A stretch of DNA of 64,000 nucleotides from assembly GCA_963281255.1 (NCBI GenBank), contig OY725498.1, positions 496,001 through 560,000 on the forward strand. Reading direction: 5' to 3'. This stretch comes from Aphrocallistes beatrix. Its lineage: Eukaryota; Porifera; Hexactinellida; Sceptrulophora; Aphrocallistidae. The position numbers and the translations under genes are program-made. How positions within the stretch are numbered: position 1 is the stretch's first letter; each line of letters begins with the position of its first letter. The notes under the pieces are model-generated. The model was not told where the DNA came from. It made no database searches and saw nothing but the letters and a program-made list of their open reading frames with translations. Positions 18,980 through 46,377 of the stretch are shown here, one piece after another.

Positions 18980-20221
18980 CTAAAGTCCGAATTTTTGAAT
19001 GCAATGGTTGGGATTCTTAGAAATTACTATTATTCTATCTTCAGAGTCTAGAGCTATTCCTGCCGCATCAATGAATTCTCCTCTATCTTCTCCTCTCTGA
19101 CCGAATTTGTGTATCAATTCTCCTCTGTTAGAGAAGATTAACACACAATTAGTAATAGAATCCGTCATTAAAATGTAATTGGCTTTATCTACACAGAAGT
19201 ACCATGGACTTATCACTAGGTTCCCTTCTACACGAGGTATTATCTGTCTGATGAGCTGGTGAGAATAATTGTAGTAACGAACACACGGATCTCCAAATAT
19301 CAACACTACAACCTCATCAGAAGTCAGCTTAACATCTCTGGGAGAGGGAATATCCTCAATGAATGAATGGAATGTAAGATCCAAGTTTAAACATTGAATT
19401 CTAGCATTCTTACTGTCACAAATGTAAATTCTTTTCTTCTCATTTGATACAGCGACTCCTCTAACCCAATCAAATTCTAGCTTTCGTTCACCTCTCTTCC
19501 CAACAGAGTTTAAGAATTTCCCTTCAGTACTATACACATTCAGGGAATGGCTCCCGTACTGTGTAACATAGACTTTGCTATGGTTGATACAGATACCTTC
19601 TGGGCAATCCATCTTCTCTTTGAAATCAAATATGAATTCCAGATTCTTAGTAAACACTTGTACACGATAGTTCTTTGAATCACAAATGTAAACATTGTCA
19701 GTTTCAGAATTTATTGCGATTGATCCAGGATAGTAGAACACTCCGGGTGATGTAGATTTACTAGAACTGTGTTTACAAGCTACCATGAGGGGGTCTCCTT
19801 TATATTCATAGGGATGGAGATCACTCACTTCGATCGATCCTATCTCGCTCAGTTTATCGAACACACACTCATCCCACTTCAACACTACTCTCCGCATGCT
19901 AGCGAGATCTCTCTCAAACTTGGCTCTTATCTCTTTTATGCGAGTTTCGTACATAAGTACACATTCTTTCACAATTTCTTTGTTTTCGTTTTCCTTCACA
20001 GAGGATAGTTGCGACTCTTTCAAACGGTTCAGCTCCTCAATCTGTTGGTTGACTCCTTCCCCCCTGTACCTAACCACCAGCTCATCCAGCTCTGACAATA
20101 GAGTGGCTTCCCTCTCCTCTAACACCTGATGAGATCTCTGGAAAATCGTGGCTATTTTCCTCCTCACTTTCTCCGCCTGAGAGAAGAATGAATCACTTCT
20201 CAACACATTAGCACTAGCCAT
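18980..20221 (-). CDS. Coiled-coil/NHL beta-propeller protein, paralogue 1
   Basis: Single-exon gene, 413 residues. Residues ~5-130 are a charged heptad-rich coiled coil (VRRKIATIFQRSHQVLEERE, QQIEELNRLKESQL). A linker with KWDECVFDKLSEIGSIEV follows. Residues ~165-413 are six NHL-type propeller blades with the typical VYICDSKNYRVQVF and SIAINSETD pattern. There is no RING or B-box, so it resembles a TRIM-NHL protein stripped of its ligase end. NHL propellers bind RNA or protein on their top face; the ligand here is unknown. Loop variants specific to this copy are YYPGS, MDCPEG, YGSHS, DWVRG, SKNAR and SPWYF. The C terminus ends IQKFGL, two residues longer than the others. The COX5A copy 1 gene lies downstream on the same strand. 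Confidence 0.9.
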   Translation of the reverse strand: MASANVLRSDSFFSQAEKVRRKIATIFQRSHQVLEEREATLLSELDELVVRYRGEGVNQQIEELNRLKESQLSSVKENENKEIVKECVLMYETRIKEIRAKFERDLASMRRVVLKWDECVFDKLSEIGSIEVSDLHPYEYKGDPLMVACKHSSSKSTSPGVFYYPGSIAINSETDNVYICDSKNYRVQVFTKNLEFIFDFKEKMDCPEGICINHSKVYVTQYGSHSLNVYSTEGKFLNSVGKRGERKLEFDWVRGVAVSNEKKRIYICDSKNARIQCLNLDLTFHSFIEDIPSPRDVKLTSDEVVVLIFGDPCVRYYNYSHQLIRQIIPRVEGNLVISPWYFCVDKANYILMTDSITNCVLIFSNRGELIHKFGQRGEDRGEFIDAAGIALDSEDRIIVISKNPNHCIQKFGL

Positions 20222-20295
20222 TTCCTAATGTTGGATGTACAATCAATTTGAGATATTATTAGTAGAAGTATAATAATCAAATACATTGATTTGGT

Positions 20296-20304
20296 CTATA
20301 AATA
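20296..20304 (-). promoter_or_regulatory. TATA-like box of NHL paralogue 1
   Basis: TATTTATAG about 75 bp before the start codon. The same motif in the same context lies 75-80 bp before four other NHL genes (23265, 26924, 31743, 46457), so it is a conserved core-promoter candidate. It is not evident before paralogue 5. Confidence 0.55.
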
Positions 20305-20689
20305 CTCTTCTGCAGTAGAATGTATTAGAGTGAACAGATCAAGTTTCAAAAGTTTACTTTAACTGAGGATTCTTATCCATTAGCGTTAACGAAAGTTCCC
20401 CTAATCCTTAGTTGATCAAATGTAAACCTATGATCTTTCGATCAATTGCAGGCGCCTCGTCAGGAGATAATTTCCTCCTGAAACTCTTCGTGCGAGATAA
20501 CAGCCTCGATAGTCAACTGTTGCAGTCATCCATAGTACTTAACTATCTGAGGAGACTGGGAGTTGTCTATGGACTGAGGAAGTGGGACATAAGCTAACAC
20601 CGATTCAGATTAATCCACTTATCCAACACCTTTCCTCCCTTTCTGTGTGTTCTGTGACAGAGGTGGTTTATGTCAATAACATAAGTTAA

Positions 20690-20943
20690 AATAGGCCTAG
20701 CTATATAGGTGATGAAAAGAGATTTTGTAGAATTATAAATCTGGTTCTTTCCTTCCAACTACAGTTTACCTTTTTGAGTCAGCTCCTTTCCGAGGTGCCA
20801 GATCTGTAGCGAGATCCCTGTGATGAGAAGTCTGTCCGTTGCCTCAGAGGAAATATCTTAGCTTTATAAACACAACATCATTACGGATATTCGCACATTA
20901 GAGTTAGTCGTACACATTACTAGTTCTATATTTAGTATAGGAA
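20690..20943 (-). pseudogene. Scrap of GTPase and COX5A sequence between tandem units
   Basis: GATTTTGTAGAATTATAAATC resembles the degenerate GTPase-derived segments at 24840 and 47085. It is followed by a short COX5A-like stretch GAGTCAGCTCCTTTCCG and then a COX5A 3' flank (CTGTCCGTTGCCTCAGAGGA) that is repeated at 29180. It marks the joint between tandem units. Confidence 0.5.
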
Positions 20944-21459
20944 CTAAGCTATTCCTCGTTCCTCTGGGGTGGGGATGCCGAGTTCGGTGAGGGTGGGTCT
21001 GATCTCCTGGATTATGTACTCGTAGATTTCAGGATTGGAGACAGACTTCACTCTCACCGACTCAAGAACTCTCATCGCAGTAGGGAAATCGTTCATGCGC
21101 CGACAGGCGTTCAGAATAGACACTTCGATCTTTGGTTCTGGAACTAAATCCATCCCGTATAAGTGATTGAACCCATTCCGTAGCAGCCACTTGTCCAGTC
21201 TCTCTTGACTGAAATAGTCCACCCACCTCTGATCGAATATCTCATCTTTCTCTTCTTGAGTCAGCTCCTTTCCGTCTGCAGAGGTGACAGGGGGTTTAGG
21301 GAACTCGACACATGCTTCAGAGAAGGAGCGCCATCCGACACTCTTCTTGCTTCTGCCACGAATGACATATCCACGGGTCTGTGAGGGAGAGAGGAGGGAG
21401 CGAGGGGTGGACAGGAACCTAGACCCGCGGAACATTGGAGAGATTAGTCTGCTAGCCAT
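20944..21459 (-). CDS. COX5A: Cytochrome c oxidase subunit 5A, intact copy 2
   Basis: Intact 171-residue duplicate of COX5A copy 1, start-to-start spacing 2,985 bp. It differs by only three residues: Arg for Gly in SQERLDK, Glu for Val in PKIEVS, and Arg for Leu in EERGIA. The presequence and the [18 protein letters not shown] core are unchanged. Both copies are open, so both could be expressed. The Gly-to-Arg and Leu-to-Arg changes are at otherwise conservative positions and may mark relaxed constraint. Confidence 0.93.
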   Translation of the reverse strand: MASRLISPMFRGSRFLSTPRSLLSPSQTRGYVIRGRSKKSVGWRSFSEACVEFPKPPVTSADGKELTQEEKDEIFDQRWVDYFSQERLDKWLLRNGFNHLYGMDLVPEPKIEVSILNACRRMNDFPTAMRVLESVRVKSVSNPEIYEYIIQEIRPTLTELGIPTPEERGIA

Positions 21460-21949
21460 CCTGACACTGGAACTAAGTCTCTAGTTTCTCAACCAAATAT
21501 CCGATCAGTTATTTATAAGAGAATTTGAAACTTAATTTATAGAATATCCATGGTGGATCACTTTGTCTGACCTTAATTAATTAAAGGAATTGACAAACAC
21601 TTTTGAATTGAAACATGGATAATAAATTTAATTTCTTTCAAAAATGAATGTTTGTTCAATGGAAAAGCGGAAAGAGAATAATTTCTGTGTGCATTTCAAT
21701 GTTAAATAAATAGCAAGGAACGATTATTTGGTGTGCTATTCCCCTTCAAAGAATTTTTTCGGTCGAGAATATATTTTCATCAGTAAAGTAAAAAGTAAAA
21801 AGGGAATGAATAGAATACAATGAATCACAAATAGACAAAAAACAAAGTTCAAAGTAAATAATGGATAAAAGTAGAAATAATAGTTTAGAGAGAATCAATA
21901 CTTCTAAAGAATGTAGCCTAACAATACTATAAATAAACTAATACTAAAG

Positions 21950-23185
21950 TCAGAATAGTTGTATGGAATGATTGGGATTCTCAGAAGCTACTATTATTCT
22001 ACCTTCAGAGTCTAGAGCTATTCCTGACACATCAACGAACTCTCCTCTATGCTCTCCTTCCCGACCGAATTTGTGCATCAATTCTCCTCTGTTAGAGAAG
22101 ATTAACACACAATTAGTAGCGTTATCCGTCATTAGAATGTTGTTAGCTTTATCTACACAGAAGAAGACTGGATGTATCACTAGGTTCCCTTCTCCATGAG
22201 GTATTATCTGTCTGATGAGCTGGTGAGAATAATTGTAATAACGAACACACGGATTTCCTAATGTCAACACTACAACCTCATCAGAAGTCAGCTTAACATC
22301 TCTGGGAGAGGGAATATCCTTAATGAATGAATGGAATTTAAGATTCAAGTTTAAACATTGAATTCTATAATTACCACTGTCACAAATGTAAATTCTATTA
22401 TTCTTATTTGATACAGCAACTCCTCTAGGCGAATCAAATTCAAGTTTTCCTTTCCCTTCCTTCCCAACAGAGTTTAAGAATTTCCCGTCAGTACTATACA
22501 CATTCAGGGAATTACTCTCGTACTGCGTAACATAGACTTTGCTATGGTTGATACAGATACCTTGTGGCCATTCCATCTTCTCTTTGAAATCAAATATGAA
22601 TTCTAGATTCTTAGTAAACACTTGCACACGACTGTGCATTAAATCACAAATGTAAACATTGTTAGTTTCAGAATCTATTGCGATTGATTCATGACAGCAG
22701 AACACTCCGGGTGATGTAGATTTACAATAACTGTATTTACAAGCTACCATGAGGGGGTATCCTTTCTCTTCATAGGGAGGGAGATCACTCACTTCGATCG
22801 ATCCTATCTCGCTCAGTTTATCGAACACACACTCATCCCACTTCAACACTACTCTCCGCATGCTAGCGAGATCTCTCTCAAACTTAGCTCTTATCTTTCT
22901 CACGCGTTCTTCCAACACAGACACAATCTTCTTCAAAGTTTCTTTGTTTTCGTTTTCCTTCACAGAGGATAGTTGCGACTCTTTCAAACGGTTCAGCTCC
23001 TCAATCTGTTGGTTGACTCCTTCCCCCCTGTACCTAACCACCTGCTCATCCAGCTCTGACAATAGAGTGGCTTCCCTCTCCTCTAACACCTGATGAGATC
23101 TCTGGAACTTTGTGGCTATTTCCCTCCTCACTCTCTCCACCTGAGAGAGGAATGGATCACTTCTCAACACATTAGCACTAGCCAT
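21950..23185 (-). CDS. Coiled-coil/NHL beta-propeller protein, paralogue 2
   Basis: Single-exon, 411 residues, same architecture as paralogue 1. The coiled coil carries the SVLEERVRKIRAK variant block, shared only with paralogue 5, in place of SVLMYETRIKEIRAK. Propeller loops specific to this copy are CCHES, LMHSR, MEWPQG, YESNS, DSPRG, SGNYR, TLGNP and HPVFF. Asn replaces Asp in SETNNVYIC. The C terminus is NPNHSIQLF. It lies 491 bp upstream of COX5A copy 2 on the same strand, as paralogue 1 does relative to copy 1. Function is unknown beyond propeller-mediated binding expected for the NHL family. Confidence 0.9.
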   Translation of the reverse strand: MASANVLRSDPFLSQVERVRREIATKFQRSHQVLEEREATLLSELDEQVVRYRGEGVNQQIEELNRLKESQLSSVKENENKETLKKIVSVLEERVRKIRAKFERDLASMRRVVLKWDECVFDKLSEIGSIEVSDLPPYEEKGYPLMVACKYSYCKSTSPGVFCCHESIAIDSETNNVYICDLMHSRVQVFTKNLEFIFDFKEKMEWPQGICINHSKVYVTQYESNSLNVYSTDGKFLNSVGKEGKGKLEFDSPRGVAVSNKNNRIYICDSGNYRIQCLNLNLKFHSFIKDIPSPRDVKLTSDEVVVLTLGNPCVRYYNYSHQLIRQIIPHGEGNLVIHPVFFCVDKANNILMTDNATNCVLIFSNRGELMHKFGREGEHRGEFVDVSGIALDSEGRIIVASENPNHSIQLF

Positions 23186-24370
23186 TTCCTAATGTTGGAT
23201 GTACAATCAATTTGAGATATTATTAATAGAGACAAAGTATAATAATCAAATACATTGATTTGGTCTATAAATACTATTCTGTTGTAGAATGTATTAGAGT
23301 GAACAGATCAAGTTTCATTTTAATTGGCTATCATACTCAAGAGCTAGAATTGGGAAATCGGAATAAGATCAAAGTATAAATAAGACCTAAAATATTTTAA
23401 AGTAGGATTGAGACTTTAAACCTCTGAAGTAGGATTAAGAGCTAAAATTGGAGGAAGAGAGAAAGAGAGCATTTTTAGTTTGAAATAGTGTTCATTTGAG
23501 TGTGAAAGTGCCATTTTTGTCTGGCATTTTAGGTCTTAATTCTACTTAGCAGTTTTTAGGTCCCTACTTCGAAGGTTTTAGCTCTTATTTCTACTTTGAT
23601 GGTTTAGGTCTTATTCCAAGAAAAAGAATAATCGTCTAGAATGAAGTATACTATTTATGTGGAAGTATTTTTATCACTTTCAAGGCTGCATTAATGGAAT
23701 GCTATAGAGAAGCAATCACAATTTTGATTGCAAATCTTCTCAAAGATATTTCGATCTATAGGAAGGGTTTATATCAACCTCTTTCTACTCTCAGTTATGT
23801 CAGCATATATATTTTCATATAAACAACCTGACACTAATTTGAATGAATATTTTTATCTGTTTCAAGAACAATAACTAACATTTCTTTATTTCTGGGAGGA
23901 TGGTCAAATGCCACCATAGTTAACCGATGAATGTTGAAGATATTTTTTCTAGGAGTTAATTAAGAGATTGATAAGCAAACGAAATGTCCCAATAATTCAT
24001 TTAATCACAAAAAACTGGTGAGAAGCTGAAACATACTAATCCTGTTCAAACCTAGATGCTACAAAGCTTAACTTCTGGAGAAATACTCACATTTCTTCAG
24101 GAATAGAAGACAAAATGGAGAACATTCTTCTGTAAGAATTTCTTTCAGAATGTAGTAACATTTTTGAGTCGAAATTGATTCTTTATCCCAGAAAAAGTAG
24201 TTATATTCTGCCAATACTGTACTTCAGACTTTGGTCCTATCTGATAGAATGGAACCACTCTAAGTGCTTCTGAATTTCGAATTCCAGCACATTTTTACTG
24301 CTTAGTTTATTTATTCAAGCTTAACTCCTCAATCGTTTGATTCATCTTTGATAGCAGGACACAATCAAGG
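23186..24370. other. Non-coding interval after NHL paralogue 2
   Basis: The first ~140 bp is the conserved NHL promoter region with a TATTTATAG box at 23265-23273. The rest is AT-rich with no gene seen. Around 23390-23620 the phrases AGTAGGATT, GGTCTTA and TTCTACTT recur in both orientations. Confidence 0.45.
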
Positions 24371-24414
24371 TTCTTCAAAAATTTATGGTACGGAAAAGCG
24401 TACCATAAGTATTA

Positions 24415-24660
24415 ATCCCAGGGTTTCCGTGGGAATGGGAATCTGTGGGAATTCCCATGGGAAAACCACAGATTCCCATATGGGATAATGGGAATGACTT
24501 TAAGCCTATGGGAATTCCCACATGTGGGAATTTGTGGGATTCTGTGAGCATCTGTTGGATTTCTTGTGGGTTTCTGTGGGATTTCCTTTGGGTTTCTGTG
24601 AGAACTCCGACAGAAATCCTGTGGGAATGGGAATTGTAATTCTATTCCCACGGCAACTCT
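24415..24660. repeat. GTGGGAAT/ATTCCCAC-rich repeat block
   Basis: About 245 bp built from variants of TGTGGGAATTCCCA and TGTGGGATTTC in both orientations, so it can form several hairpins. It contains CGTGGGAA or TGTGGGAA at about six places. No coding capacity is supported. Confidence 0.75.
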
Positions 24661-24739
24661 GATTAATCCCAATGGAGTCACACTTATTTTCTCCGGGAAA
24701 AAAGTATTTAAGATCGGTTTTGAGGAGATTTCCACCAAA

Positions 24740-24902
24740 GCTTTCAGTGGATTCATTTTATCAGAAGATTTGCTTCAGTTTCTATGAATTTATAATTTCT
24801 ATTGATGGCAGTGAAATTAGGTCTAGATAGCTCTAAGAGACTCTGTAGAATTATGAATCTTTTATATTCATTCCAACTACATCTTAATTCTAAATAGTTG
24901 CC
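24740..24902 (-). pseudogene. GTPase-derived fragment
   Basis: TTGCTTCAGTTTCTATGAAT, AAATTAGGTCTAGATAGCTC and TGTAGAATTATGAATC follow the same order as the decayed GTPase fragment at 46990-47110, which in turn matches the A-type GTPase genes (TTGCTTCAGTTCAATTCCTC at 48230). Too decayed to translate. Confidence 0.5.
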
Positions 24903-25131
24903 TGATCGAATATCTCATCTTTCTCTTCTTGAGTCGGCTCCTTTCCGTCTGCAGAGGTGACAGGGGGTTTAGGGAACTCGACACATGCTTCAGAGAAGGA
25001 GCGTCATCCGACACTCTTCTTGCTTCTGCCACGAATGACATATCCACGGGTCTGTGAGGGAGAGAGGAGGGAGCGAGGGGTGGACAGGAACCTAGACCCG
25101 CGGAACATTGGAGATTAGTCTGCTAGCCATC
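24903..25131 (-). pseudogene. COX5A pseudogene, 5' half only
   Basis: Corresponds to the presequence and first part of COX5A and stops at the position of EIFDQ, joined to the GTPase fragment. A 2-bp deletion (GGAGATTAG for GGAGAGATTAG) shifts the frame after about six codons. A G-to-A change turns the Trp codon of VGWRSF into TGA. The 3' half is absent. It sits between NHL paralogues 2 and 3, where the tandem unit predicts a COX5A gene. Confidence 0.92.
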
Positions 25132-25612
25132 CTGACACTGGAACTAAGGCTCTAGTTTCTAAACCAAATATCCGATCAGTTATTTATAACAGAATTTGAA
25201 ACTAAATTTGTAGAATTCAATGGCGGATCGCTTTGAATTCTCTGACCTTAATTAATTAAAATGAATTACCAAACAAATTCGAATAAAAACAGGGATTAAG
25301 AATGTTTAATTCCATTTAAAAATGAATCTGGGTTCAATGGATATAAGTGACTGGATTAGAGGAGAGAAGGAATAATTTCAGTGGGTATTTCAATGTCAAA
25401 AAATAGCCAGGAACGATTATTTGGGTGAGAATGCTATTCACCTTCAACGATTTCATTGGGTCGAGAATATATTTTCGCTCCTCAATAAAGTGAAAAGAGA
25501 ATGAAAAGAACACAGTGAAGGCCAAAATGTAAAAGGTTCAAAGGGAGTAATGAATGAAAGAATAAATACTAAAGAATGTACCTTAACAAAACTAAAAATA
25601 AACAAATACAAG

Positions 25613-26848
25613 TCAGAATAGTTGGATGCAATGATTGGAATTCTGAGAAGCTACTATTATTCTATCTTCAGAATCTAGAGCTATTCCTCTAACTTCAATG
25701 AACTCTCCTCTATCTTCTCCTTTCTGACCGAATTTGTGTATCAATTCTCCTCTGTTAGAGAAGATTAACACACAATTTGTAGCAAGATCTGTCAATAGAA
25801 TGTTGTTAGCTTTATCCAAACAAAGGTGCGATGGATCTATTACGAGGTTCCCTTCTCCACGAGGTATTATCTGTCTGATGAGCTGGTGAGAATAATTGTA
25901 GTAACGAACACACGGATCTCCTGATGTCAACACTACAACCTCATCAGAAGTCAGCTTAACATCTCTGGGAGAGGGAATATTCTTAATGAATGAATGGAAT
26001 GCCAGGTCAAAGTTTAAACATTGAATTCTCACATTATCTCTCTCACAAATGTAAATTCGTTTCTTCTCATTTGATACAACAACTGCTCTAGGCCAATCAA
26101 ATTGTAGTTTTCCATTACCTTTCTTCCCAACAGAGTTTAAGAATTTCCCTTCAGTACTATACACATTCAGGGAATGTCTTCCGTACTGCGTAACATAGAC
26201 TTTGCTATGGTTGATACAGATACCAACTGGCCAACACATATTCTCTTTGAAATCAAATATGAATTCCAGATTCTTAGTAAACACTTGTACACGATCGTTA
26301 CCTAAATCACAAATGTAAACATTATCAGTTTCAGAATCTATAATGATTGATTTGGGACACCAGAACACTCCGGGTGATGTAGAATTACTATAACTGTGTT
26401 TATAAGCTACCATGAGGGGGTCTCCTTTCTCTTCATAGGGAGGGAGATCACTCACTTCGATCGATCCTATCTCGCTCAGTTTATCGAACACACACTCATC
26501 CCACTTCAACACTACTCTCCGCATGCTAGCGAGATCTCTCTCAAACTTAGCTCTTATCTCTGCTATGTGAGTTTCGTACATGAGCACACTATTCTTCACA
26601 ATTTCTTTGTTTTCGTTTTCCTTCACAGAGGATAGTTGCGACTCTTTCAAACGGTTCAGCTCCTCAATCTGTTGGTTGACTCCTTCCCCCCTGTACCTAA
26701 GCACCAGCTCATCTAGCTCTGACAATAGAGTGGCTTCCTTCTCCACTAACACCTGATGAGATCTCTGGAACTTTGTGGCTATTTCCTTCCTCACTCTCTC
26801 CACCTGAGAGAGGAATGAATCACTTCTCAACACATTAGCACTAGCCAT
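25613..26848 (-). CDS. Coiled-coil/NHL beta-propeller protein, paralogue 3
   Basis: Single-exon, 411 residues. The coiled coil has the SVLMYETHIAEIRAK block. Propeller loops distinct from the other copies are WCPKS, LGNDR, MCWPVG, YGRHS, DWPRA, RDNVR, TSGDP, DPSHL and IEVRG. Strand and core positions such as VYICD, VQVFTKNLEFIFDF and IPSPRDVKL are unchanged. A TATTTATAG box lies at 26924-26932, but upstream of about 26935 the promoter sequence shared by other copies is replaced by retroelement sequence. Its coding sequence is nevertheless intact. Confidence 0.9.
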   Translation of the reverse strand: MASANVLRSDSFLSQVERVRKEIATKFQRSHQVLVEKEATLLSELDELVLRYRGEGVNQQIEELNRLKESQLSSVKENENKEIVKNSVLMYETHIAEIRAKFERDLASMRRVVLKWDECVFDKLSEIGSIEVSDLPPYEEKGDPLMVAYKHSYSNSTSPGVFWCPKSIIIDSETDNVYICDLGNDRVQVFTKNLEFIFDFKENMCWPVGICINHSKVYVTQYGRHSLNVYSTEGKFLNSVGKKGNGKLQFDWPRAVVVSNEKKRIYICERDNVRIQCLNFDLAFHSFIKNIPSPRDVKLTSDEVVVLTSGDPCVRYYNYSHQLIRQIIPRGEGNLVIDPSHLCLDKANNILLTDLATNCVLIFSNRGELIHKFGQKGEDRGEFIEVRGIALDSEDRIIVASQNSNHCIQLF

Positions 26849-26935
26849 TTCCTAATGTTGGATTTACAATCAATTTGAATTATTATTAGTAGAGACAAAG
26901 TATAATAATCAAATACATTGAGTCTATAAATACCA

Positions 26936-28060: not shown

Positions 28061-29200
28061 TTATTGACGCCTCTCGTGAGTCCATTGGCTCGCGAGCTTC
28101 TTCTTCCCAGCAGACCGAGCAGCTATACGAGTCAGCTAGACGAGTCAGCTAAGGTAAACACAGAGGCGATTCTGCTCTATCATCCTTACGCAATTGTTGT
28201 TCTGCTATACCTCTCAACTTATCTGAGATCTCGACTCTCTGAACTTAGGAGTCTAAATACCCTGAATACAACCCTAATGCTCCGGATAAAGCATACAGTA
28301 AACCTATCTCGCGAAGTGTAACACAAAAACGTATCCATGAGCCAACGGAGGTAATAGAAGCGCTTGAGCTGAGTCAAGATGGCAAACCGCTTCTTAGAAG
28401 CAGAGCTGAACTGTTGTGCGATGTAGATTAAGAATGGAATGCCCTGCTTATCTACATAATCGAAATACCGAACCATCGCTAGGAGAAACTGCCTCCGCTA
28501 TTGCGGATTGCTGTGGACCATGGATTAGATAGCTCGCATCCTACTTTCCCCGCCCAACCTCCCCGCACCAGTCCATCGCCTGAGAGAACTTTCAAGAATT
28601 CAAATCTCCTTCGTATCCAGACCAAGATCTGAGTGTGCAGTATCAACTTGTTTCCCTGATTCATCCCTAGCAGCGACTCAGCCTTGACAGAAATGGGTTG
28701 GACGCTGTCAGTAGACATCGCAATGAGACAGGGGATACAGGGAGCGGGGTAGATCAGGCCCTGACAGAGGACCATGGACAGTAGATTGATAATTTAAGAT
28801 TGTTATACATATTCTCGACATTTTAGTTTGCCGACGATAAATATTTATAAGGCCAAATTCTGAAATGAATTCATCTCTATTTTTGGTTTTTTGGGGTTTT
28901 TTCTCCAGTACGGGGTTTAGGAATGTAGACTCCTGAGCTGTCTTAACTAAGCAGCTTATTCTGAATCTAACTATTCTCTTCAAGTTTTCCTCTTCACACA
29001 GATCGGGAGTATTCTGACAGCTGATTTCTCCTCTCTCTCTCTCTCTGTTCCGATGAGAATAGAAACAGCGGCGGTGAAGAATGGAGGTTGCCATGAAGGA
29101 ATTGTTTGATTCTCTCAGAGTATACTGAGATGTGAGGTGACAAGGCAGTAGCGATATCCCTGGTGCCACCACTGATGAGATGTCTGTCCGTTGCCTCAGA
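28061..29200. other. Non-coding interval with possible retroelement debris
   Basis: No intact gene seen. Frames between 28061 and 28770 are short and broken and may be later parts of the same retroelement. From about 29020 there is a CT microsatellite (29029-29047). From 29180 a COX5A 3' flank shared with 20835 begins. Confidence 0.4.
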
Positions 29201-29295
29201 GGAAATATCTTAGCTTTACTGACATAACATCATTACGGATATTCTCCCATTAGAGTTAGTCCTACACATTACTAGTTCTATATTTAGTATAGGAA

Positions 29296-36354: not shown

Positions 36355-39300
36355 TCAATTATTGTACTGAGGTCCTGGATCTTGTCCATCTCTCTCGTCT
36401 GCTCCAGCTGCTGTCATCTTGTCTAAGCTAAAGTAACTGAGTAATGGAACTTCTGACTTCTGACCTGTAAGCATCATGCTCTTAGTTAGAGTTATTTTTG
36501 ACTCAGGCTTCTCTTCCAAGGAGAAAGGAATGTGTCCACTTATTTTTGTTTCTTTCTCTGTTGTTGCATTGGCAGAATTGAGCAAGATTGAGACTGATTT
36601 ATGTAGGTTTATTTCATCTGGCTCCTCAGTTCTTTTCTTTATGCAATCGCTCTCTTGAAACTTTGTCCTTATCAGATCCTTCAAAATTCTAGAAGTTTCG
36701 TCTGTTGACATTCTTTCAGTGACACAAGCATATCTATTATTCACTTTTTCGATCAGAGTTCTTAAATACGAATGTTCTTTGATTGCTTTATTAACAAATT
36801 CATCGTCGTTAATTGATAATTGGAAAAGAATGCTAGTGTATTGCCACTCAGATACCTTCTTCCCACCTGTGGAATTATTTTCTGCTAATTTTAGAATGTT
36901 GGCATATATTTTCTCGTTAAAATCTCCTCTGATATGTATCAGTAATATTCTGATTGGTTGGTTGATCACAGAGCTCAGTTCTTTCAGTGCTTCTACTATT
37001 GAGAATGAGATGCTTTTCTTCTTGAAAATAGCATCTTTAAAATCAGAAATATTTTGAATAGAAGTATCCACCTCAATATTGCATTTGTTTGCATCTTCGT
37101 TTGCTCTACTGAGTTTGTGATACGATTCAGGAGTTTTATTAATTTGGTTTTCGGTGTCAACAAGTTTTCTGCTCTCTTTCTCGTCTACTAAACCCTCCTC
37201 GCTTTTAATATTTGCTCTATGATCACCTGTCTCTCGTCTTAAAATGCGAACAGTATCGTTTTCAGGATTTTTGTTACTTTCGAGATCTACAGGGTTACTC
37301 ATCCTTCGATTCATTTCACTGGGGGCATGCTGAGATTGTTCATTCTTGTTTTCAAAGCGTTTAAAAAACTCCATTTGTGTATTAACAATCCCTCCTTTAG
37401 GAATTTTCTGCATTTCTCTCTGTGATAGCCCCGCTATACCATTAGTTGTCACTTTATCACTAACTGCATGGTTCCTACCTACTTTCCCCATTTCTTCTTT
37501 GCTCTTGTTTTCAGATTTGGAATCTCTTTGGATTTTGTTCTCTGTTTGAAAGACTTCCTTGCTCCTATCTTCGTTTTTAAGATCTTTTTTGCTCTCAGTA
37601 TCTGCCACACAATTACTTTTCTCTCTCTTTACGACAATACAAAGACACTCCCACCCATTGTTTTTATCCTTTTCTGAGCCTCTGAGCTTTTCTAAAAATT
37701 CTAAAGAATTCTTGTCAATTTCTCCCTCATGCTCTCCTGTCTCTCTTGATACTAGTATAATCCTCACTGACGTATCACTAGTTGTCATCAGTTCTTTAAT
37801 ACTGTTAACTATATACCCATCGTTTAATGGACCCCCATTGTTCTGATCTCCCTGCTCAAGGACTTCTATGATTTTGCTTTCGTGTTTAGAATCTGTTTCG
37901 ATTATTTCATCGGGTTTAAACATTTCTACCACCTGGTCATCGGATTTATCAACTTCTTTGGGGTCGTTATTAGTTTCAAGATCTTCTTTGAGTTGGTCAT
38001 TAGTTTCTAGATTTTCTTTGGGTTGGTATTTTTCAGTTCTGAATGTCTGATCTGGATTTTGTGTGGTTGGCTGTAAGATCTTCCTTAAAGTTTCATTGCT
38101 GTTTGTCTTGGTCAAATTCATAGCGTTTAGGAATATATATCTCCGTTCCACTAATTTTAATAACTTCCTTAAAAATGCATGATCTTCTAGCTGTAACTTC
38201 TCCTCTAATATATTCCTGAGATAATCTGCAGAATCATTGTCGAATTCGTCCACATGAGTGAATACTATTATGGCGTTGGAATAGAAATCAAAACCTCCAA
38301 TGGCTAGGATTAGAGAAGCATCATTAATTTTGGTAAATTCATCTTGAGAGAAAGATTCTGAGCTGAAATTAACCGTGATGAGGAAGGTTAGGTTATCTGA
38401 GCATTTTATACCACTGATGCAGTTAGCTAGATATTCTCCGTATGATTTTGAGGTTGAACTTTCTGGTTGATCTACTACTTGAATTCTCAGCGATTCATCT
38501 GAATTGTACGTATCTTCATTTCCATTCATAATCAACTCAGGTAGATCGGCTTCACTTATTGGAAAACCTTTCATCCTTCCAGTTGGCTTGATCCAATATG
38601 TTGGAAATACAGGTGCAAACAACAACAAATTGGCTAAGGAGCTTTTGCCGCTTTGTTTCTCTCCAAATAAGATGAATCTTCGCTGTATATTTTCACTTCT
38701 AAATCCTCCTGCTTTACCATTATAATGTTTGAATGAATCCACCATCTCATTATACCTATTTAGGGCACATATGAGAAACAGTTCAGATTTAAGATCATTA
38801 ATTTCCACGATACATCATACATGACATTAACGATAGTTACGAAAGATATATAAAACATTTATAAATCAACAATTTTGAAGAATTTAACTTTAAAAAATAA
38901 AGCATCAGTAATGTATTTCGTCTCCAAGTAACTGATGAAATAATATTCTAGAACTTACCCAGGTAAATGAGTTCCTCCTAAGGTTAACTTCTCTTTCATA
39001 GAATGCATTGCATCTCGTAACTTCTGCACGAGTTCTCCGTATTCAGTACTGTCAGACATCCAAATGTATCTGTTCCCTGCTTTCTTGACGGTTTGTTTGA
39101 TGCCTCCGTTTTTCTCAAACGACCTCATCACTTGATTGTCGTTTCTCTCCTCCATCTCTCCCATTGAGAATGCTATTATGACATGTTTCCACCACTCTTT
39201 CTCGTTTCTTTGATTGTATCCATATAATTTGCTGTGAGGTAACTTTTGTATCATCGTAGACATTCCTTCACTGAATATCTCTGTCAGACTGATGAGTACT

Positions 39301-39542
39301 AAGATAGCTGATACCTCTACACCTTGGTATGATTCTTCTATTAACCTTATCATCTCTGCATTTGGAATACATGGGGAACTTCTGTTATACAGGTTTATGT
39401 CTGAAAATGGAAAGAATTTGAAATCTTCTAAGGGATTCCTCCCAGGAATTTCCATCTGATTTATGAGTTCTATTGATTTGAATGCTTTATTTCCATGTGT
39501 GATTATTCGAAGAGGATGAATCAGTTTTTTGTCGCTTGCCAT
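36355..39542 (-). CDS. Multi-domain AIG1/GIMAP-like GTPase (BC'), two exons
   Basis: Exon 1 (38959-39542) ends at a strong GTAAGT donor and joins in phase 2 to exon 2 (36355-38755) after a TAAATAG acceptor, giving 994 residues. Exon 1 is a degenerate AIG1-like domain with no P-loop (ISAILVLISLTEIFSEGMST, GNRYIWMSD). Exon 2 opens with a GTPase domain: P-loop GEKQSGKSS, DQPE where DxxG is expected, FTHVD as the guanine-specificity motif and RRYIFLNA as the AIG1-type G5 region. A long charged low-complexity region follows. A further P-loop-less domain (SVINQPIRILLIHIRGDFNE, NRYACVTERM) then follows. GIMAPs act on organelle membranes in immune cells. No membrane segment is evident here. The same intron and phase occur in the inverted copy at 58910. 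Confidence 0.75.
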
Positions 39543-41144
39543 ATTAGCTAATTCAGAGTAAGAGATCTCAATATTAGCTTAGATGTGATTTAATAATTTT
39601 TGAATTTGTTCTCAACCATTTTAGTAATCTTTCTCAACAATAAATCGTGTTTCGGGCATTAGGAATCTATACACACCTATCTATTATAAATGATGAAATG
39701 ATAATCTGAAAAATCAGATATCACATACAGTCGAAACAGTTTTTCTATTTTTAGGTTCGAACAATAAGAAAAATGTCGGTCGACAGACCGATAGTGCAGC
39801 TCCAGGAAGTGACTCGAAGGAACTTGAAATCTGAATATCGGAATACGTCGGGAAATACTCATTTTAGGGCATTTTACGTGTGAAATTTGGAATACCGTAT
39901 TGCTTCGAATAAGCGCCCGGGCGCTTATTTATTTCGTGCACCCTTTAGACCCGGCGCTTATTCAAGCCCCGGCGCTTATTTTTTTCATTCGATATTTTGA
40001 CCCGGCGTTCTTTTTTACTACATTGGCTGGCACTTTTATTTTTGCCACAACTGAGAATGTTAGTTCTATTAAATAGGTGTGAGAATATGTACTTTATATA
40101 TCAATATTTAATAGCTCATAAAATATTCACATTATTTCTTTCAAAGTGCGAAAATCGGAATCTACGTACATATTAAAATATCCTATATTAGCTGTTGAGA
40201 ACTCGGTTTTAGCTCAAAATAAGATTTTTTTCAAAAGGTGTGAAAATATGTATGTATCAATATGCTAATACGAGTAACTCATAAACTATTCATGTTATTA
40301 CTTTCAAAGCGCGAAAATCGGATCCTACATGGTGAAATACCCTACATTAGTTGTTGAGATCTTGCTTATATCTTTAAACAAAGTTTCGCAGTGGAGGTGT
40401 TAAAATATGAATATATACTTATAAAAACCGGAAGTGAAGAGATTTTGCGAAAAAATGTTGACGGTGCACATCTACGAGTACACCATAAAGAGATCCTACA
40501 TGCGAAATTCGGTAAAAATCGGACTGTTAGATTTCGCAGGAGTGCGCGTACGGACATACATACATACATACATACATACATACATACATACATACATACA
40601 TACATACATACATACATACATACATACATACATACATACATACATACATACATACATACATACATACATACATACATACATACATACATACATACATACA
40701 TACATACTCTCCCTATAGGAGCTGCACTAAAAACGATGTAATTTAGCACTCGGTTTATGAAAGAATTCGAACGAATCTAAGAACAATAATTCATTAATAA
40801 TTATATAATTATCCCTGGAATGACTTGGGGTCAAAGATATAAATTGAAATGACTTTTATAAATAGAAATCGCTTATGATTAAATTCTTTATCATACTTAT
40901 ACATATACTATGCTCATTGCTAGACACATACATGGTCAAACACTAATCAGCAGATTAGAAGTAGAATCTAGGAGCTCATTCTATTCCAAAGATAATTATA
41001 GAATCGAATTGCCTAAATATATCTAAGCCGTTAATAGAGTTGGGGCAAAAAATAAAATTATCACAAATAAACAATTAAGTTTGACTATCAAAATATACAA
41101 TAATTGTTCAAATTCAGGAATTCTATGTGGGGTAGCTTCCAAAC
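39543..41144. other. Interval between BC' and A' GTPase genes
   Basis: No gene seen. Repeated CCCGGCGCTTATT motifs at 39905-40010, a long CATA microsatellite and AT-rich sequence. The equivalent interval in the inverted block (58464-58909) is only 446 bp, so about 1.1 kb was gained here or lost there. Confidence 0.5.
40554..40707. repeat. CATA tetranucleotide microsatellite
   Basis: About 38 perfect ACAT/CATA units in a row with no interruption. Met-Tyr-Val-Cys and Ile-His-Thr-Tyr open frames through it are artefacts of a 4-bp period that stays open. Confidence 0.98.
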
Positions 41145-42743
41145 TTAATGCTTCTCCATTGCCTTAATGCAGTAGTCAGTGTACTCCTTAGTTGGAATCT
41201 TAGCTTCTTTGTCTGGATGCTTTCCTCTAAATTCTTCAGCGATGTCAGGATTTATATTCTTCAAAATGAAATAACCAATCATGGGGGATATTTCTTCTTT
41301 ATCCCAGAAGAAACCGTTGGCCTCTACCATCACTTTAGATCCATCATGTGATTGGTAGAACGGAATATCCTGGCGTAAATATTCGTCATCAATTCTGCCA
41401 CTCATTCTAGTCATGTGGCGGCTTCGTTTTAGCTGATCTGCTCCTCTTATCCTTTGCCTCATCTCAGTTAGCACCACTCTGTCAGTGTATGTCTTCCCTT
41501 CTGCATCCAATTTTACTTTCCTAACCAAGTCAGTCAATCTCTTAGAGCATTCCTCAGGCGATGTTCTCTTTGTTACCCAACTGTATCGAGACTTGACCCT
41601 TAATTTTATTTCTTGTAACAATTTGTAATGCGCGACACTCTGCCTAACTCATTCTTCTGAATCATCTGGCGCCTTGAACAAGATGCATGCATAGTCCCAG
41701 AAATCCTGTTTGAATTCTTTCCCAAGGTTGTAGGTTTTAGGAAGATTGAGGATGAGATTGTAGATTTCTTTGTTGAACACTTCTTCAAGGCTTATCAGTA
41801 GTACCATGGCTGAGATTCCCTTTGTAATCCCACTTAATTTCTCTAACGCATTACTAATATCCTCCTCCAAGTTTCTTCTCTCATGTTTCCTAAACAGGTT
41901 AAGATCAGGGTTGAAATGGTATTCTACATCTTGTTTGAGAAGATTTCTTTCGAAGCTATCTTTGTATTCATCTTCTCTGAATAACTGCTTCAGTTCATTT
42001 CCTCTGAATCCGTTATTTCCGTTAATGTACACAGTTAGATTGGGTTTAGTTAGCGCAAAGAGATTCTTCAGTATGGTAAATCGGTTTAAATCGCTTCTAT
42101 CTTGTCCGTTAATAAAGATGTATCTCTCTTCCACCAAGTCTATTAGCTCCTGGATGCATTCAAAATCTTCTTCTCTCACCTTCTCGTAGAGTATTTGTTT
42201 GAGTGTATCCCGCTTCATATGTGGATCCAGTTTGTCTGCGTGTGTGAATACGACTATTGCATTTGAGAAGAAACTGTAGCTGCAATCACTCAGAATCTCA
42301 GCGAGGTTTAGCATTGTAATCAACTCTTCAGAGCTGAAGAAACTTCCTTGGAGATCGATGAGAATGAGGAATGTAGCAGTCATTTCAGCTTTAGCAACTG
42401 CGATGCATTTTTTCAGGAATTCGCAATGGTTTTCGAACTTAAAATTTTGGTCATTAATTCCAGGTTGATCCAATACTTGAATATTCAAGATTTCATTTGG
42501 ACTTCCGTTTAGATCGTAGACCTGACCTGACTCAATCTTGGCTTCTCCTGAATGGACCTTCACTGTAAGTCCGAATGCTTCTGGAAATTTATGTTCACTG
42601 AACTGTTTGCTACCCAAAAGTAAGTTACCGAGAGTACTTTTCCCCGAGGAATTTTTCCCCAATAAAATAAAAGATCGATCGAAATTTCTTTCTTTCACTG
42701 CTTTTGCTCCTTCAACAACATTTCCTTTTTTGAAAAAAGCCAT
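41145..42743 (-). CDS. AIG1/GIMAP-like GTPase (A'), interrupted by in-frame TGA
   Basis: Starts MAFFKKGN. Domain 1 has P-loop GKNSSGKST, DQPG (DxxG), FTHAD and ERYIFING, a complete AIG1-type GTPase set. Domain 2 lacks a P-loop (ITKGISAMVLLISLEEVFN) and resembles exon 1 of the BC genes. At codon 365 (41649-41651) a TGA replaces the Cys367 TGT codon of the intact copy at 56859. The same frame then stays open for 168 codons to 41145 (VKSRYSWVTKRTSPEEC, IGYFILKNINPDIAEEFRG). It may make a 364-residue truncated protein, be read through, or be a pseudogene. The first ~1.1 kb is almost identical to the 56859 gene, while the remainder matches the decayed 47.4-kb copy. Confidence 0.65.
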
Positions 42744-42966
42744 CTTAAATAATTGAATCAAACTAACTCGAATAAAAAAATATCAGAATTTTGTCATGTT
42801 CTGGGATTAAAAAGGGTTAATGGTATTTGTAATGAGGATTCACTTATCTCCCGTATTAGTTCAAAGTTCCTTACAACATTCCTGTTCATTCATAACTACG
42901 GATACATCTAAATAAGATTTAGCAAGAATAGAAATAAAGATATAGTCATAAGTCTCAAATGTGCGG

Positions 42967-44185
42967 TCAATGTTTCCCCTTCCTATGCACAGAAAGAGGA
43001 GATCTGCTTCGATCCCTCTCACGTCTGGACTCGAATTTGTGTCGCTCTGTGTGTCTCCTGTGTCCGTGGGAAGGAGAGGGAGGTGACAAGTGGCGCTTAG
43101 AGCTGTGTCGGTGTTTTGAATCTTTGTTGCTAAAAATAGAATTGATTTTATAATAAAAGTGCCAAACTATTTTCATTCTAAATTTAGTTCTTGACTGTCT
43201 AGATAAAGAATTCTCAGCAATATTCTTGATGAAAACCGACGCATCAGAAAATCAGATGCTTTATTGGAGGAAAGACATTTCTAAATTTACAAAATTTTAT
43301 AGTTTTTTATTCTGTTAAAATTTTTAACTGTGTTTACAATATTTTCGTATTTCAAAGAGAGATGAATTTGGATTTGACTTAAGTGCTATCAATATTAACG
43401 ATGAGACGACAGTGAGACACAAATGGTTTAGATTTGATATCAAATTAAATGTAAACATTTCTGTTCTAAATACAACCTGTGTCTCCTGGTATATGTGGGA
43501 GAGTCTCTGCTGTCTCTCTTTTCAATCTTTGAATCTCTAAAAATAGAACAGTAAGATTAGGTTCAAATTCCAAGCATTCCAGTACGGAATAACGTAGTCA
43601 AGGGATGGAGAGTGATTGAGCGAACCATTAAGATTACCCAACCAAATTCTTCTCTGTCGTGATCAGCTGTTCTTCAGGCGCCAGATCGTACTTAGACACA
43701 TCATCGTTAGACTATAAATAGACATTCCATTAAAGCTCTTCGGTAACCACAACAAAGGAATTTAAGCGCGGAATGGTTAGTAGCTATATTTAGTAACAAA
43801 CCTCTTCATTATCACTCTCCAGATTATATTTAGAAAGATCTCCATCTTCACTGGAACTCTCTCCTGAACCTAACACCTCCTGCTTCTAAAAATAGAAACA
43901 GTCACCAACTTCTAATAATAGAACATTGGGTTATATTAATATTTCACACCTTATTGTCTTCTGAAGGTTTCCGAAACTTCTTCTTTCTACGTCCAAACTA
44001 AATAGAGAATAAACACAAATATTTGTTTATTGTGCATATTACAGAGGTTTTCAGTTCGTGTATTATTTATCTGAGGTGTGAAAAGTGTGTCGTGATTGTG
44101 TCACAACTCACATCATCATATTCTCCGTCTGAATCCCTCTTTATATACTCCACTTCTTCCCTCTCGTTGAAACCTCCCCCGATAC
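42967..44185 (-). pseudogene. ZRANB2 duplicate lacking both zinc fingers
   Basis: Exons equivalent to ZRANB2 exons 5-10 at 44112-44185, 43950-43997, 43802-43885, 43638-43711, 43477-43536 and 42967-43129. All have intact splice sites and phase; exon 9 has one extra codon. They encode GGGFNEREEVEYIKRDSDGE, FGRRKKKFRK, GDLSKYNLESDNEE and the SR-like tail ending HRKGKH. Exons 1-4 with the two RanBP2-type zinc fingers are missing because the duplication stops upstream at 44359. Without a start or RNA-binding fingers it is presumably a pseudogene, though its frame is undamaged. Confidence 0.88.
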
Positions 44186-44370
44186 CTGAAAACAGTGCAA
44201 CCATTCAACCACAAAATAGAAGAACATTCACAGAAAAGTCAATTTCAATATTTATCAATGTTTATAATGGATTCCTGATACTGAATAAACAGCTGTTCTC
44301 AACTTTTATCATAAAGTGCAGACACTGAGATAATCTATGGAGCTAGGTTGAGATTGCCTTATATGGAGCA

Positions 44371-44450
44371 AGGCTGGATTCAGTTAACCGGATAACCGCC
44401 GTCAATCTCGGTTGACGGTTGAGAAAATCTTAGACCAGTTAGCAGATCTG
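44371..44450. repeat. GGTTAACCG-type element end
   Basis: GGCTGGATTCAGTTAACCGG followed by CCGTCAATCTCGG matches the right end of 15424-15735 in inverse orientation. It sits immediately at the breakpoint of the 41.1-44.36 kb duplication. Confidence 0.6.
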
Positions 44451-44459
44451 TGTTATTAT

Positions 44460-44638
44460 ATGTTGCTAGGTTTATCTACACAGAAGTAGGATGGATCTAT
44501 CACTAGGTTCCCTTCTCCACGAGGTATTATCTGTCTGATGAGCTGGTGAGAATAATTGTAGTAACGAACACACGGATCTCCTGATGTCAACACTACAACC
44601 TCATCAGAAGGATACCAGAACACTCAGGGGGATGTAGG
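44460..44638 (-). pseudogene. NHL gene fragment, internally deleted
   Basis: Matches part of the NHL propeller (GAGGTATTATCTGTCTGATG, ACAACCTCATCAGAAG) and then jumps to a segment near the start of the propeller (GATACCAGAACACTC). Everything in between is deleted. It indicates a seventh NHL copy once stood here. Confidence 0.85.
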
Positions 44639-44990
44639 GCCAAGATTCCTTTTTAAATAATTGCTTCGCACGGCCCTGTATATACCTTGTATAGTAATTG
44701 ATGTATCCGAATATTCACTTAGATTTCTTATATTTATTATCCGTTGACAATGAAACGAATTTCCCAAATATTGGATATTCGTCAGTTTCAGAACGAATAT
44801 TCGTTTGCGTTAAATTGGAAATATTGCAATTCATTGTGGCATTGTTGTGTTCTTAGTCGATGAAATTAAATATTTGCATTTATTGTTAAGATGGATTTTA
44901 TTTGGAGATAAATCAAAATTGAGTGCCAATCCAACATATAAATCGAAACACGTCCTGGCAGCTTGGCTGCTCGGTTTATCCTAAGCAGTA
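44637..44990. repeat. Segment duplicated from or to 35140-36093
   Basis: Counterpart of the 35140 block. No gene seen. Contains GTTGACAATGAAACGAATTT and CAAAATTGAGTGCCAATCC. Confidence 0.7.
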
Positions 44991-45141
44991 AAAGGAGAAT
45001 GAATGGATACAATGAATCTCAAAATTTGAAAAACACAAGGGTCAAAGCAAGAAAAAACAAAAGTAGAAATAATGGTTTAGGGGAAATCAATATTTCCAAA
45101 GAATATAGTCTAACAATAAGATAAACAAACTAATACTAAAG

Positions 45142-46377
45142 TCAGAATAGTTGGATGCAATGATTGGGATTCTCAGAAGCTACTATTATTCTATCTTCAG
45201 AGTCTAGAGCTATTCCTGACACATAAATGAACTCTCCTCTATCCTCTCCTTTCTGACCGAATTTATGTATCAATTCTCCTCTGTTAGAGAAGATTAATAC
45301 ACAATTAGTAGCAAAATCCGTCATTAGAATGTTGCTAGCTTTATCTATACAGAAGTAGCATGGATATATCACTAGGTTTCCTTCTCCACGAGGTATTATC
45401 TGTCTGATGAGCTGGTGAGAATAATTGTAGTAGCGAACACACGGATCTCCTGATATCAATACTACAACCTCATCAGAAGTCAGCTTAACATCTCTGGGAG
45501 AGGGAATATCCTCAATGAATGAGTGGAATGTTAGATCCAAGTTTAAACATTGAATTCTACTATTACGACTGTCACAAATGTAAATTCTTTTCGTTACGTT
45601 TGATACAGCAACTCCTCTAGGACAATCAAATTGTAGTTTCCCTTTGCCATGCTTCCAAACAGTTTTCAAGAATTTCCCTTTAGTACTATACAAATTTAGG
45701 GAATTTCTCATTAACTCCGTAACATAGACTTTGCTATGGTTGATACCGATACCAACTGGCACATACATCTGCTCTTTGAAATCAAATATGAATTCCAGAT
45801 TCTTTGTAAACACTTGAACACGATGGTTCATCGAATCACAAATGTAAACATTGTCAGTTTCAGAATCTATTGCGATTGATCCAGGACACCAGAACACTCC
45901 GGGTGATGTAGATTTACTAGAACTGTGTTTACAAGCTACCATGAGGGGGTCTCCTTTCTCTTCATAGGTAGGAATATCACTTAATTCGATCGATCCTATC
46001 TCGCTCAGTTTATCGAACACACACTCATCCCACTTCAACACTACTCTCCGCATGCTAGCGAGATCTCTCTCAAACTTAGCTCTTATCTCTTTTATGCGAG
46101 TTTCGAACAAAAGTACACTTTTCTTCACAGTTTCTTTGTTTTCGTTTTCCTTCACAGAGGAAAGTTGCGAATCTTTCAAACGGTTCAGCTCCTCAATCTG
46201 TTGGTTGACTCCTTCCCCCCTGTACCTAACCACCAGCTCATCCAGCTCTGACAATAGAGTGGCTTCCCTCTCCACTAACACCTGATGAGATCTCTGGATC
46301 TTTGTGGCTATTTCCCTCCTCACTATCTCCACCTGAGAGAGGAATGAATCACTTCTCAACACATTAGCACTAGCCAT
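45142..46377 (-). CDS. Coiled-coil/NHL beta-propeller protein, paralogue 6
   Basis: Single-exon, 411 residues, 10 kb from the rest of the array and embedded between the duplicated GTPase segments. The coiled coil has SVLLFETRIKEIRAK. The propeller carries LNLYSTKGKFLKTVWKHGK, related to paralogue 5. Loop variants are WCPGS, SMNHR, MYVPVG, LMRNS, DCPRG, SRNSR, ISGDP, YPCYF and IYVSG; GICIN is GIGIN. A TATTTATAG box lies at 46457-46465. Confidence 0.9.
   Translation of the reverse strand: MASANVLRSDSFLSQVEIVRREIATKIQRSHQVLVEREATLLSELDELVVRYRGEGVNQQIEELNRLKDSQLSSVKENENKETVKKSVLLFETRIKEIRAKFERDLASMRRVVLKWDECVFDKLSEIGSIELSDIPTYEEKGDPLMVACKHSSSKSTSPGVFWCPGSIAIDSETDNVYICDSMNHRVQVFTKNLEFIFDFKEQMYVPVGIGINHSKVYVTELMRNSLNLYSTKGKFLKTVWKHGKGKLQFDCPRGVAVSNVTKRIYICDSRNSRIQCLNLDLTFHSFIEDIPSPRDVKLTSDEVVVLISGDPCVRYYNYSHQLIRQIIPRGEGNLVIYPCYFCIDKASNILMTDFATNCVLIFSNRGELIHKFGQKGEDRGEFIYVSGIALDSEDRIIVASENPNHCIQLF

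What the first reader, a model, noticed from the sequence alone, without database searches (positions are those of the whole stretch)
18980..46377. Six NHL propeller paralogues vary almost only on the predicted binding face
Aligning the six proteins by eye, coiled coil and strands are nearly identical, but short loops change in almost every copy. Examples in order of paralogues 1-6: before strand a of blade 1, YYPGS, CCHES, WCPKS, YFPGS, WYPES, WCPGS; blade 2, MDCPEG, MEWPQG, MCWPVG, MYWPQG, MDHPGG, MYVPVG; blade 5, SPWYF, HPVFF, DPSHL, NPWYF, NPCYF, YPCYF. The b-c turn (SKNYR, LMHSR, LGNDR, SMNHR and so on) varies as well. In NHL structures such as Brat and LIN-41 the DA and BC loops form the top face that binds ligand. 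Variation confined there, in all six blades, is what a set of diversifying recognition surfaces would look like. This is the best candidate here for an undescribed system: RING-less coiled-coil/NHL sensors in a tandem array.
Basis: partly seen in the sequence, partly recalled or inferred. Interest (0 to 1): 0.88.

Follow-up and report, generated by a model that had tools for sequence, protein, structure and literature searches.

The report
Propeller genes with a diversified binding face
An unnamed invertebrate carries a large family of coiled-coil plus beta-propeller genes whose copies differ mainly on one predicted ligand-binding face, under strong positive selection, as expected of a repertoire of recognition proteins rather than of ordinary duplicates.

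Summary
Confirmed and extended. The six ORFs and quoted loop motifs are as described. In 16 intact close copies about 8% of codons have omega about 6 (M1a/M2a 2dlnL 312, M7/M8 357; still 215 and 258 with multi-nucleotide changes; 20 null simulations with varying trees gave at most 29 for M1a/M2a). On the AlphaFold six-bladed propeller 15 of 18 selected sites lie in DA/BC (top-face) loops and 3 at the top of strand a; none in 48 AB/CD (bottom) loop or 89 strand b-d residues. Selected sites share 21% identity, the rest of the propeller 84%. Four other subfamilies select largely the same positions. Five neighbouring AIG1 GTPases and three RING/B-box NHL genes show no such excess. About 160 full-length members were counted, a lower bound. 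The subfamily flanks an AIG1/GIMAP-like array of about 30 places. Best reading: TRIM-NHL derivatives without RING or B-box forming a diversified intracellular recognition repertoire, probably immune; ligand unknown. Some linker and coiled-coil sites are selected too, so 'almost only' is slightly strong. Literature and homologue searches failed, so novelty is unconfirmed.

The parts
18980..20221 (-). NHL paralogue 1, single ORF, 413 aa (coiled coil + six-bladed NHL propeller)
21950..23185 (-). NHL paralogue 2, single ORF, 411 aa
25613..26848 (-). NHL paralogue 3, single ORF, 411 aa
30428..31663 (-). NHL paralogue 4, single ORF, 411 aa
33687..34922 (-). NHL paralogue 5, single ORF, 411 aa
45142..46377 (-). 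NHL paralogue 6, single ORF, 411 aa; reference for residue numbering
45997..46344 (-). coiled-coil region of paralogue 6 (residues 12-127), three predicted helices, low pLDDT; no selected site (M8 PP>0.9) over 16 copies, but residues 89 and 93 pass in the six copies alone
45145..45945 (-). linker and NHL propeller of paralogue 6 (residues 145-411); selected residues 155,163,164,183,206,208,222,223,243,252,271,273,292,309,338,340,355,376,385,387,402
   Evidence: M8 PP>0.9 over 16 copies; DSSP on AlphaFold model; PDB comparison

Best explanation
The six genes belong to a very large family of intracellular TRIM-NHL derivatives without RING or B-box. Each protein is a conserved coiled coil, which probably dimerises or joins a RING-bearing partner, followed by a six-bladed NHL propeller. 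Tandem duplication and dispersal make copies; positive selection then changes residues at the DA and BC loops and the tops of the inner strands in all six blades, so that each copy presents a different top surface on a fixed scaffold. Shown here: the architecture, the family size (as a lower bound), the location of the variable sites, and omega well above 1 in several subfamilies. Inferred: that the top face binds a ligand in each copy, that the ligands are fast-evolving foreign or conflict-driven molecules (most likely pathogen proteins), and that the coiled coil passes the signal on, for example by recruiting an E3 ligase or scaffold.
For: Selection: 16 copies, M7/M8 2dlnL 356.7, M1a/M2a 312.3, M8a/M8 301.5, omega 6.0 on 7.8% of codons; with double and triple substitutions allowed 258.1, 215.4 and 208.7; with six blocks on their own trees M7/M8 215.0 and M1a/M2a 177.6; 20 null simulations with differing block trees gave at most 28.8 for M1a/M2a, against 316.8 for the data in the same pipeline. 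Location: 15 of 72 DA+BC residues, 3 of 38 strand-a, 0 of 48 AB+CD, 0 of 89 strand b-d; Fisher p 1.1e-6. Test on positions chosen elsewhere: 15 positions hit in at least two of three other subfamilies give pN/pS 1.82 (bootstrap 1.37-3.37) in the six copies, rest 0.56; all 39 positions hit in any of the three give 1.46 (1.06-2.16), rest 0.46. Replication, M7/M8 2dlnL: S3 249.5 (13 genes), C14 56.3 (10), S2 10.4 (5), C3 2.1 Mb 152.6 (14), C12 3.8 Mb 54.8 (9); 16 positions recur in at least 3 of 5 subfamilies (S2 not counted). Tryptophan is 11-fold enriched at selected propeller sites, with acidic and basic residues about balanced. Controls: AIG1 GTPases omega 0.24, M1a/M2a 0.0, M7/M8 3.1 (5 of 13 genes); RING/B-box NHL array pN/pS 0.41 in top loops, 0.40 elsewhere in the propeller (3 genes). 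Context: the subfamily lies on both sides of an AIG1/GIMAP-like array at C12:534-713 kb.
Against: No ligand, expression or population data. The AIG1 neighbourhood is only suggestive; the surroundings of the other subfamilies were not examined. Class-average dN/dS of DA+BC loops is about 1, not above. With all 39 outside positions and only one-nucleotide codon differences the ratio is 1.41 with an interval that includes 1 (0.78-4.36 for six, 0.90-2.61 for sixteen). Silent variation is mildly raised in top loops (0.212 against 0.124-0.157), and the inferred synonymous rate averages 1.91 in BC loops against 0.97-1.48 in other loops, so some local mutational or conversion effect is possible. In the C14 subfamily the top-versus-rest contrast is not significant (p 0.21), and it has 2 hits in AB loops; C3 2.1 Mb has 2 in AB/CD loops and 1 in strand b, S3 1 in strand c. 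The FUBAR-like grid supports fewer sites than M8 in the subfamilies. Linker sites (129-155) are selected too.
Confidence: 0.6

Rival explanations
1. The top face binds RNA, as in Brat, Lin41/TRIM71 and other TRIM-NHL proteins, and the repertoire silences transposon or viral RNAs whose sequences keep changing.
For: The nearest solved relatives include RNA-bound NHL domains: Lin41-RNA 6fq3, Brat-RNA 5ex7 and 4zlr, TRIM71-Trincr1 8j72 (entry titles). That the same face is used for RNA there is recalled, not read here.
Against: Selected sites are not strongly basic: K+R ranges 0-6 of 21 per copy, D+E 1-6, and W, Y, M and E are enriched.
Confidence: 0.2
2. The proteins are substrate adaptors for ubiquitin ligases or take part in reproductive or self/non-self conflict, so the diversified face tracks the host's own fast-evolving proteins, not pathogens. 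Nematode MATH-BTB and F-box adaptor families are the recalled analogy.
For: A TRIM-like coiled coil is kept without RING; NHL genes with B-box and weak RING matches exist in the same genome as possible partners.
Against: Nothing here separates it from immune recognition except the AIG1-rich neighbourhood, which mildly favours immunity.
Confidence: 0.15
3. Relaxed constraint in surface loops, with gene conversion and multi-nucleotide mutation, mimics positive selection.
For: DA+BC class-average dN/dS is about 0.9; differing block trees inflate the test (up to 28.8); allowing multi-nucleotide changes lowers 2dlnL; one-nucleotide counts over all 39 outside positions do not exclude a ratio of 1.
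Against: Bottom loops are conserved (0 of 48 selected). The corrected tests remain far beyond the null. At the 15 positions hit in two other subfamilies, one-nucleotide differences alone give ratios of 4.71 and 2.41, intervals above 1. The same positions recur in separate subfamilies. A PHI-like test found no significant recombination (p 0.116).
Confidence: 0.04
4. A targeted mutation or template-switching process writes variation into the loops.
For: Codons at variable sites often differ at two or three bases; silent variation and the inferred synonymous rate are higher in the top loops, BC above all.
Against: In the six copies codons right beside the variable ones stay conserved (P207, G209, P339). 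Inferred synonymous rate at the 21 FUBAR-like sites is 1.38 against 1.20 elsewhere.
Confidence: 0.04

Closest known systems
TRIM-NHL proteins (TRIM2, TRIM3, TRIM71/Lin41, Thin, Brat, Mei-P26)
   Different: No RING and no B-box found; about 160 full-length copies counted; top face diversified by selection
Teleost finTRIM family (recalled; not read)
   Same: Large duplicated TRIM-derived family with positive selection reported in the recognition domain
   Different: finTRIM uses B30.2/SPRY and keeps RING and B-box; here the scaffold is an NHL propeller
Nematode MATH-BTB and F-box adaptor expansions (recalled; not read)
   Same: Lineage-specific expansion with positive selection on the substrate-binding surface
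   Different: Other folds; no BTB or F-box match in the Pfam scans of the six proteins
B-box NHL genes of this same genome (L092, L094, L095, L096, L097)
   Same: NHL repeats; L092, L094 and L095 form a tandem array on C3
   Different: B-box above its cut-off in all five; RING match present but below cut-off in four, none in L097; no excess of replacement changes in the top loops of the three array members

Membership tests
TRIM-NHL | NHL six-bladed propeller | tested here: met
TRIM-NHL | RING finger | tested here: not met
   no RING match in six of six window proteins; none of the genome's 64 zf-RING_UBOX matches lies in the window (one RING model only; nearest 7 kb outside, C12:488491)
TRIM-NHL | B-box | tested here: not met
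   no match in six of six window proteins; none of the genome's 24 B-box matches lies on contig C12
TRIM-NHL | coiled coil | tested here: inconclusive
   helices 12-54, 57-73 and 81-127 predicted, but block pLDDT there 33-70; no coiled-coil predictor run
Diversifying recognition repertoire (functional kind) | many intact copies | tested here: met
   163 places with long stop-free matches, at least one of them out of frame near its end (L050)
Diversifying recognition repertoire (functional kind) | positive selection focused on one face, scaffold conserved | tested here: met
Diversifying recognition repertoire (functional kind) | variation among individuals | not testable with these tools
   one genome only
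Diversifying recognition repertoire (functional kind) | ligand binding at the variable face | not testable with these tools
   needs binding experiments

The most novel reading that the evidence does not exclude
An undescribed animal recognition system: hundreds of germline-encoded coiled-coil/NHL proteins in which the beta-propeller serves as a constant scaffold and about 20 residues on its top face, contributed by all six blades, serve as a variable binding site shaped by conflict with pathogens.
Probability: 0.4. Interest if true: 0.9.

Novelty: new variant of a known kind. Interest (0 to 1): 0.78.

Why it matters
NHL propellers are best known as conserved RNA- or protein-binding domains of a few developmental regulators (recalled). 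Here the same fold appears to have become a diversified receptor surface across about 160 genes or more, with largely the same positions selected in separate subfamilies. If right, it adds a scaffold to the short list of germline recognition repertoires, gives a ready map of an NHL binding face, and ties one subfamily to an AIG1/GIMAP-rich locus in an invertebrate.

Tried and rejected
Differing trees along the gene, multi-nucleotide mutation and relaxed constraint were each modelled and did not remove the signal. Localised hypermutation is not favoured (synonymous rate 1.38 at selected sites against 1.20) but not excluded: BC loops average 1.91. Uncollapsed haplotypes are rejected for the six, which sit in one stretch of one contig with flanks that diverge beyond the shared upstream piece. 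A conserved TAG-GAA-ATG start can be read as an in-frame stop or as a splice acceptor, so a small extra 5' exon is not excluded. Organism: mitochondrial COX1 on contig C28 fits an invertebrate mitochondrial code with AGA read as Ser (my judgement, no reference compared); no phylum was assigned.

My first version of the outside-position test used a hand-typed 'union' of 30 positions that had left out 9 hits, none of them in a DA or BC loop (150, 173, 213, 260, 299, 318, 348, 399, 410); its ratio was 1.91. The full union of 39 was rerun and gives 1.46, which is what I report.

Rows dropped: L025, L037, L038 (truncated or broken); L050 (out of frame near its end); L032 and L035 (only two of their kind); L065 and L067 (short); L001, L005, L007, L008 (another subfamily, split, or other NHL genes); 8 of 13 AIG1 genes (outside the group of 5); of the RING/B-box array L093 (no NHL in its ORF).
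Full report
OBSERVATION. The window is C12:496001-560000 of an unnamed 100.5 Mb genome in 28 contigs. The six ORFs are intact, on the minus strand, 411-413 aa, 89-92% identical in DNA and 80-85% in protein. The quoted motifs are correct. Six of six proteins have Pfam NHL matches and none a RING or B-box match.

FAMILY. Searching the genome with paralogue 6 gave 103 matches, of which 16 are intact copies at 76% identity or more: 12 on C12 and one each on C1, C3, C4 and C11, with several broken or partial copies besides. The union of long, stop-free places (coverage about 94% of the query or more, judged from the tables) is 163; at least one of them, C17:259848 (L050), runs out of frame near its end, so I write 'about 160'. 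A further 101 NHL-bearing places come; some of these are fragments or other NHL genes. The searches score only the best candidates, so these are lower bounds.

SELECTION. I wrote a codon-likelihood script (GY94, F3x4, IQ-TREE trees) because PAML was not at hand. For the 16 copies M0 omega is 0.73; M7/M8 2dlnL 356.7, M1a/M2a 312.3, M8a/M8 301.5; the selected class has omega 6.0 and 7.8% of codons; 24 codons have PP>0.9 (list). Controls: six blocks with their own trees, M7/M8 215.0 and M1a/M2a 177.6, the first block (1-70) showing no signal; multi-nucleotide changes allowed, 258.1 (M7/M8), 215.4 (M1a/M2a), 208.7 (M8a/M8), 23 codons PP>0.9 under M8 and 19 under M2a; 20 null simulations with differing block trees, M1a/M2a from 0 to 28.8, against 316.8 for the data in the same pipeline. 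So the test is inflated by differing trees, but by far less than the signal. For the six window copies alone M7/M8 2dlnL is 82.8 and omega 6.4. A FUBAR-like grid gives 21 sites, with mean synonymous rate 1.38 there against 1.20 elsewhere; by class the rate is 1.91 in BC loops, 1.48 in DA, 1.37 in CD and 0.97 in AB.

POSITIONS CHOSEN ELSEWHERE. Positions selected in at least two of three other subfamilies (15) were applied to this one: pN/pS 1.82 (bootstrap 1.37-3.37) in the six copies and 1.64 (1.33-2.10) in sixteen; the rest gives 0.56 and 0.54. With every position hit in any of the three (39, of which 22 are DA/BC, 8 strand a, 3 linker and 6 elsewhere) it is 1.46 (1.06-2.16) and 1.59 (1.27-2.13), rest 0.46 and 0.43. 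Counting only one-nucleotide codon differences the 15 positions give 4.71 and 2.41 with intervals above 1, the 39 positions 1.41 and 1.41 with intervals that include 1 (which replaces an incomplete union). Against the reading, the plain average over all DA+BC residues is 0.94 and 0.91, and silent variation at unchanged codons is somewhat higher in top loops: 0.212 against 0.153 (bottom loops), 0.157 (strands) and 0.124 (N-terminal part).

REPLICATION. M7/M8 2dlnL: S3 249.5 (13 genes), C14 array 56.3 (10), S2 10.4 (5), C3 2.1 Mb 152.6 (14), C12 3.8-4.26 Mb 54.8 (9). Among five subfamilies (S2 not counted) 16 positions recur in three or more, all in DA/BC loops, DA1 or the start of strand a. DA+BC enrichment is significant in four of five; in C14 it is 6 of 13 (p 0.21) with 5 more in strand a and 2 in AB loops. 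Off-face hits elsewhere: C3 2.1 Mb 2 in AB/CD loops and 1 in strand b, S3 1 in strand c.

CONTROLS. Five AIG1 GTPases from the neighbouring array: M0 omega 0.24, M1a/M2a 0.0, M7/M8 3.1. Three members of a B-box NHL array: pN/pS 0.41 in top loops, 0.40 in the rest of the propeller, 0.54 in the N-terminal part. Both controls are small.

CHARACTER OF THE FACE. Tryptophan is 11 times more frequent at selected sites than in the linker-plus-propeller as a whole, tyrosine and methionine 2.3 times, glutamate 2.0 times; acidic and basic residues roughly balance. Mean identity is 21% at selected sites, 84% elsewhere in the propeller, 86% in the coiled coil.

CONTEXT. C12:534-713 kb holds 31 of the genome's 91 AIG1 matches (about 30 places, some short or broken). 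The NHL subfamily lies on both sides (463-542 and 723-806 kb), with paralogue 6 inside the left edge of the array. The genome has 24 B-box matches, none on C12.

MECHANISM. Shown: architecture, copy number as a lower bound, location of diversifying selection. Inferred: the top face binds different ligands; the coiled coil dimerises or recruits a partner; pathogen proteins are the likeliest ligands. The N termini show no hydrophobic signal-like start by eye (no predictor run), hence an intracellular place is likely.

NOVELTY. Paper searches and paper reading failed each time and the homologue search was off, so I cannot say whether this family is in print. By kind it is a new variant of a known kind: expanded recognition families with selected binding surfaces.

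Noticed in passing
window 36355-42761 (-) and 56859-63527 (+): Inverted near-duplicate pairs of AIG1-like GTPase genes; the four longest blocks match at 88-99% identity in opposite orientation.
   Followed up: partly
window 60448-62857: A 30-base coding minisatellite, about 80 copies, inside an AIG1-type ORF at 59706-63527, giving 10-residue repeats.
   Followed up: no
window 9315-9953 (+): ORF with an ADP-ribosylglycohydrolase match (E 6.2e-20, profile positions 219-286 of 287).
   Followed up: no
window 4137-4545 and 40554-40707: A tandem repeat array with a unit of about 31 bases, and an ACAT array of 38 copies.
   Followed up: no
G000:C12:4253732-4265110: Four NHL copies spaced exactly 3380 bases apart with identical scores: recent tandem amplification or an assembly effect.
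   Followed up: no
G000:C3:485000-496700 (L092-L095): Tandem array of NHL genes with B-box and a weak RING match, possible parent type of the RING-less family.
   Followed up: partly
upstream of the 16 copies: Most copies share up to about 130 bases upstream; ATTAGGAA stands right before the ATG in 14 of 16, while several (L016, L021, L022, L023) have different upstream DNA.
   Followed up: partly
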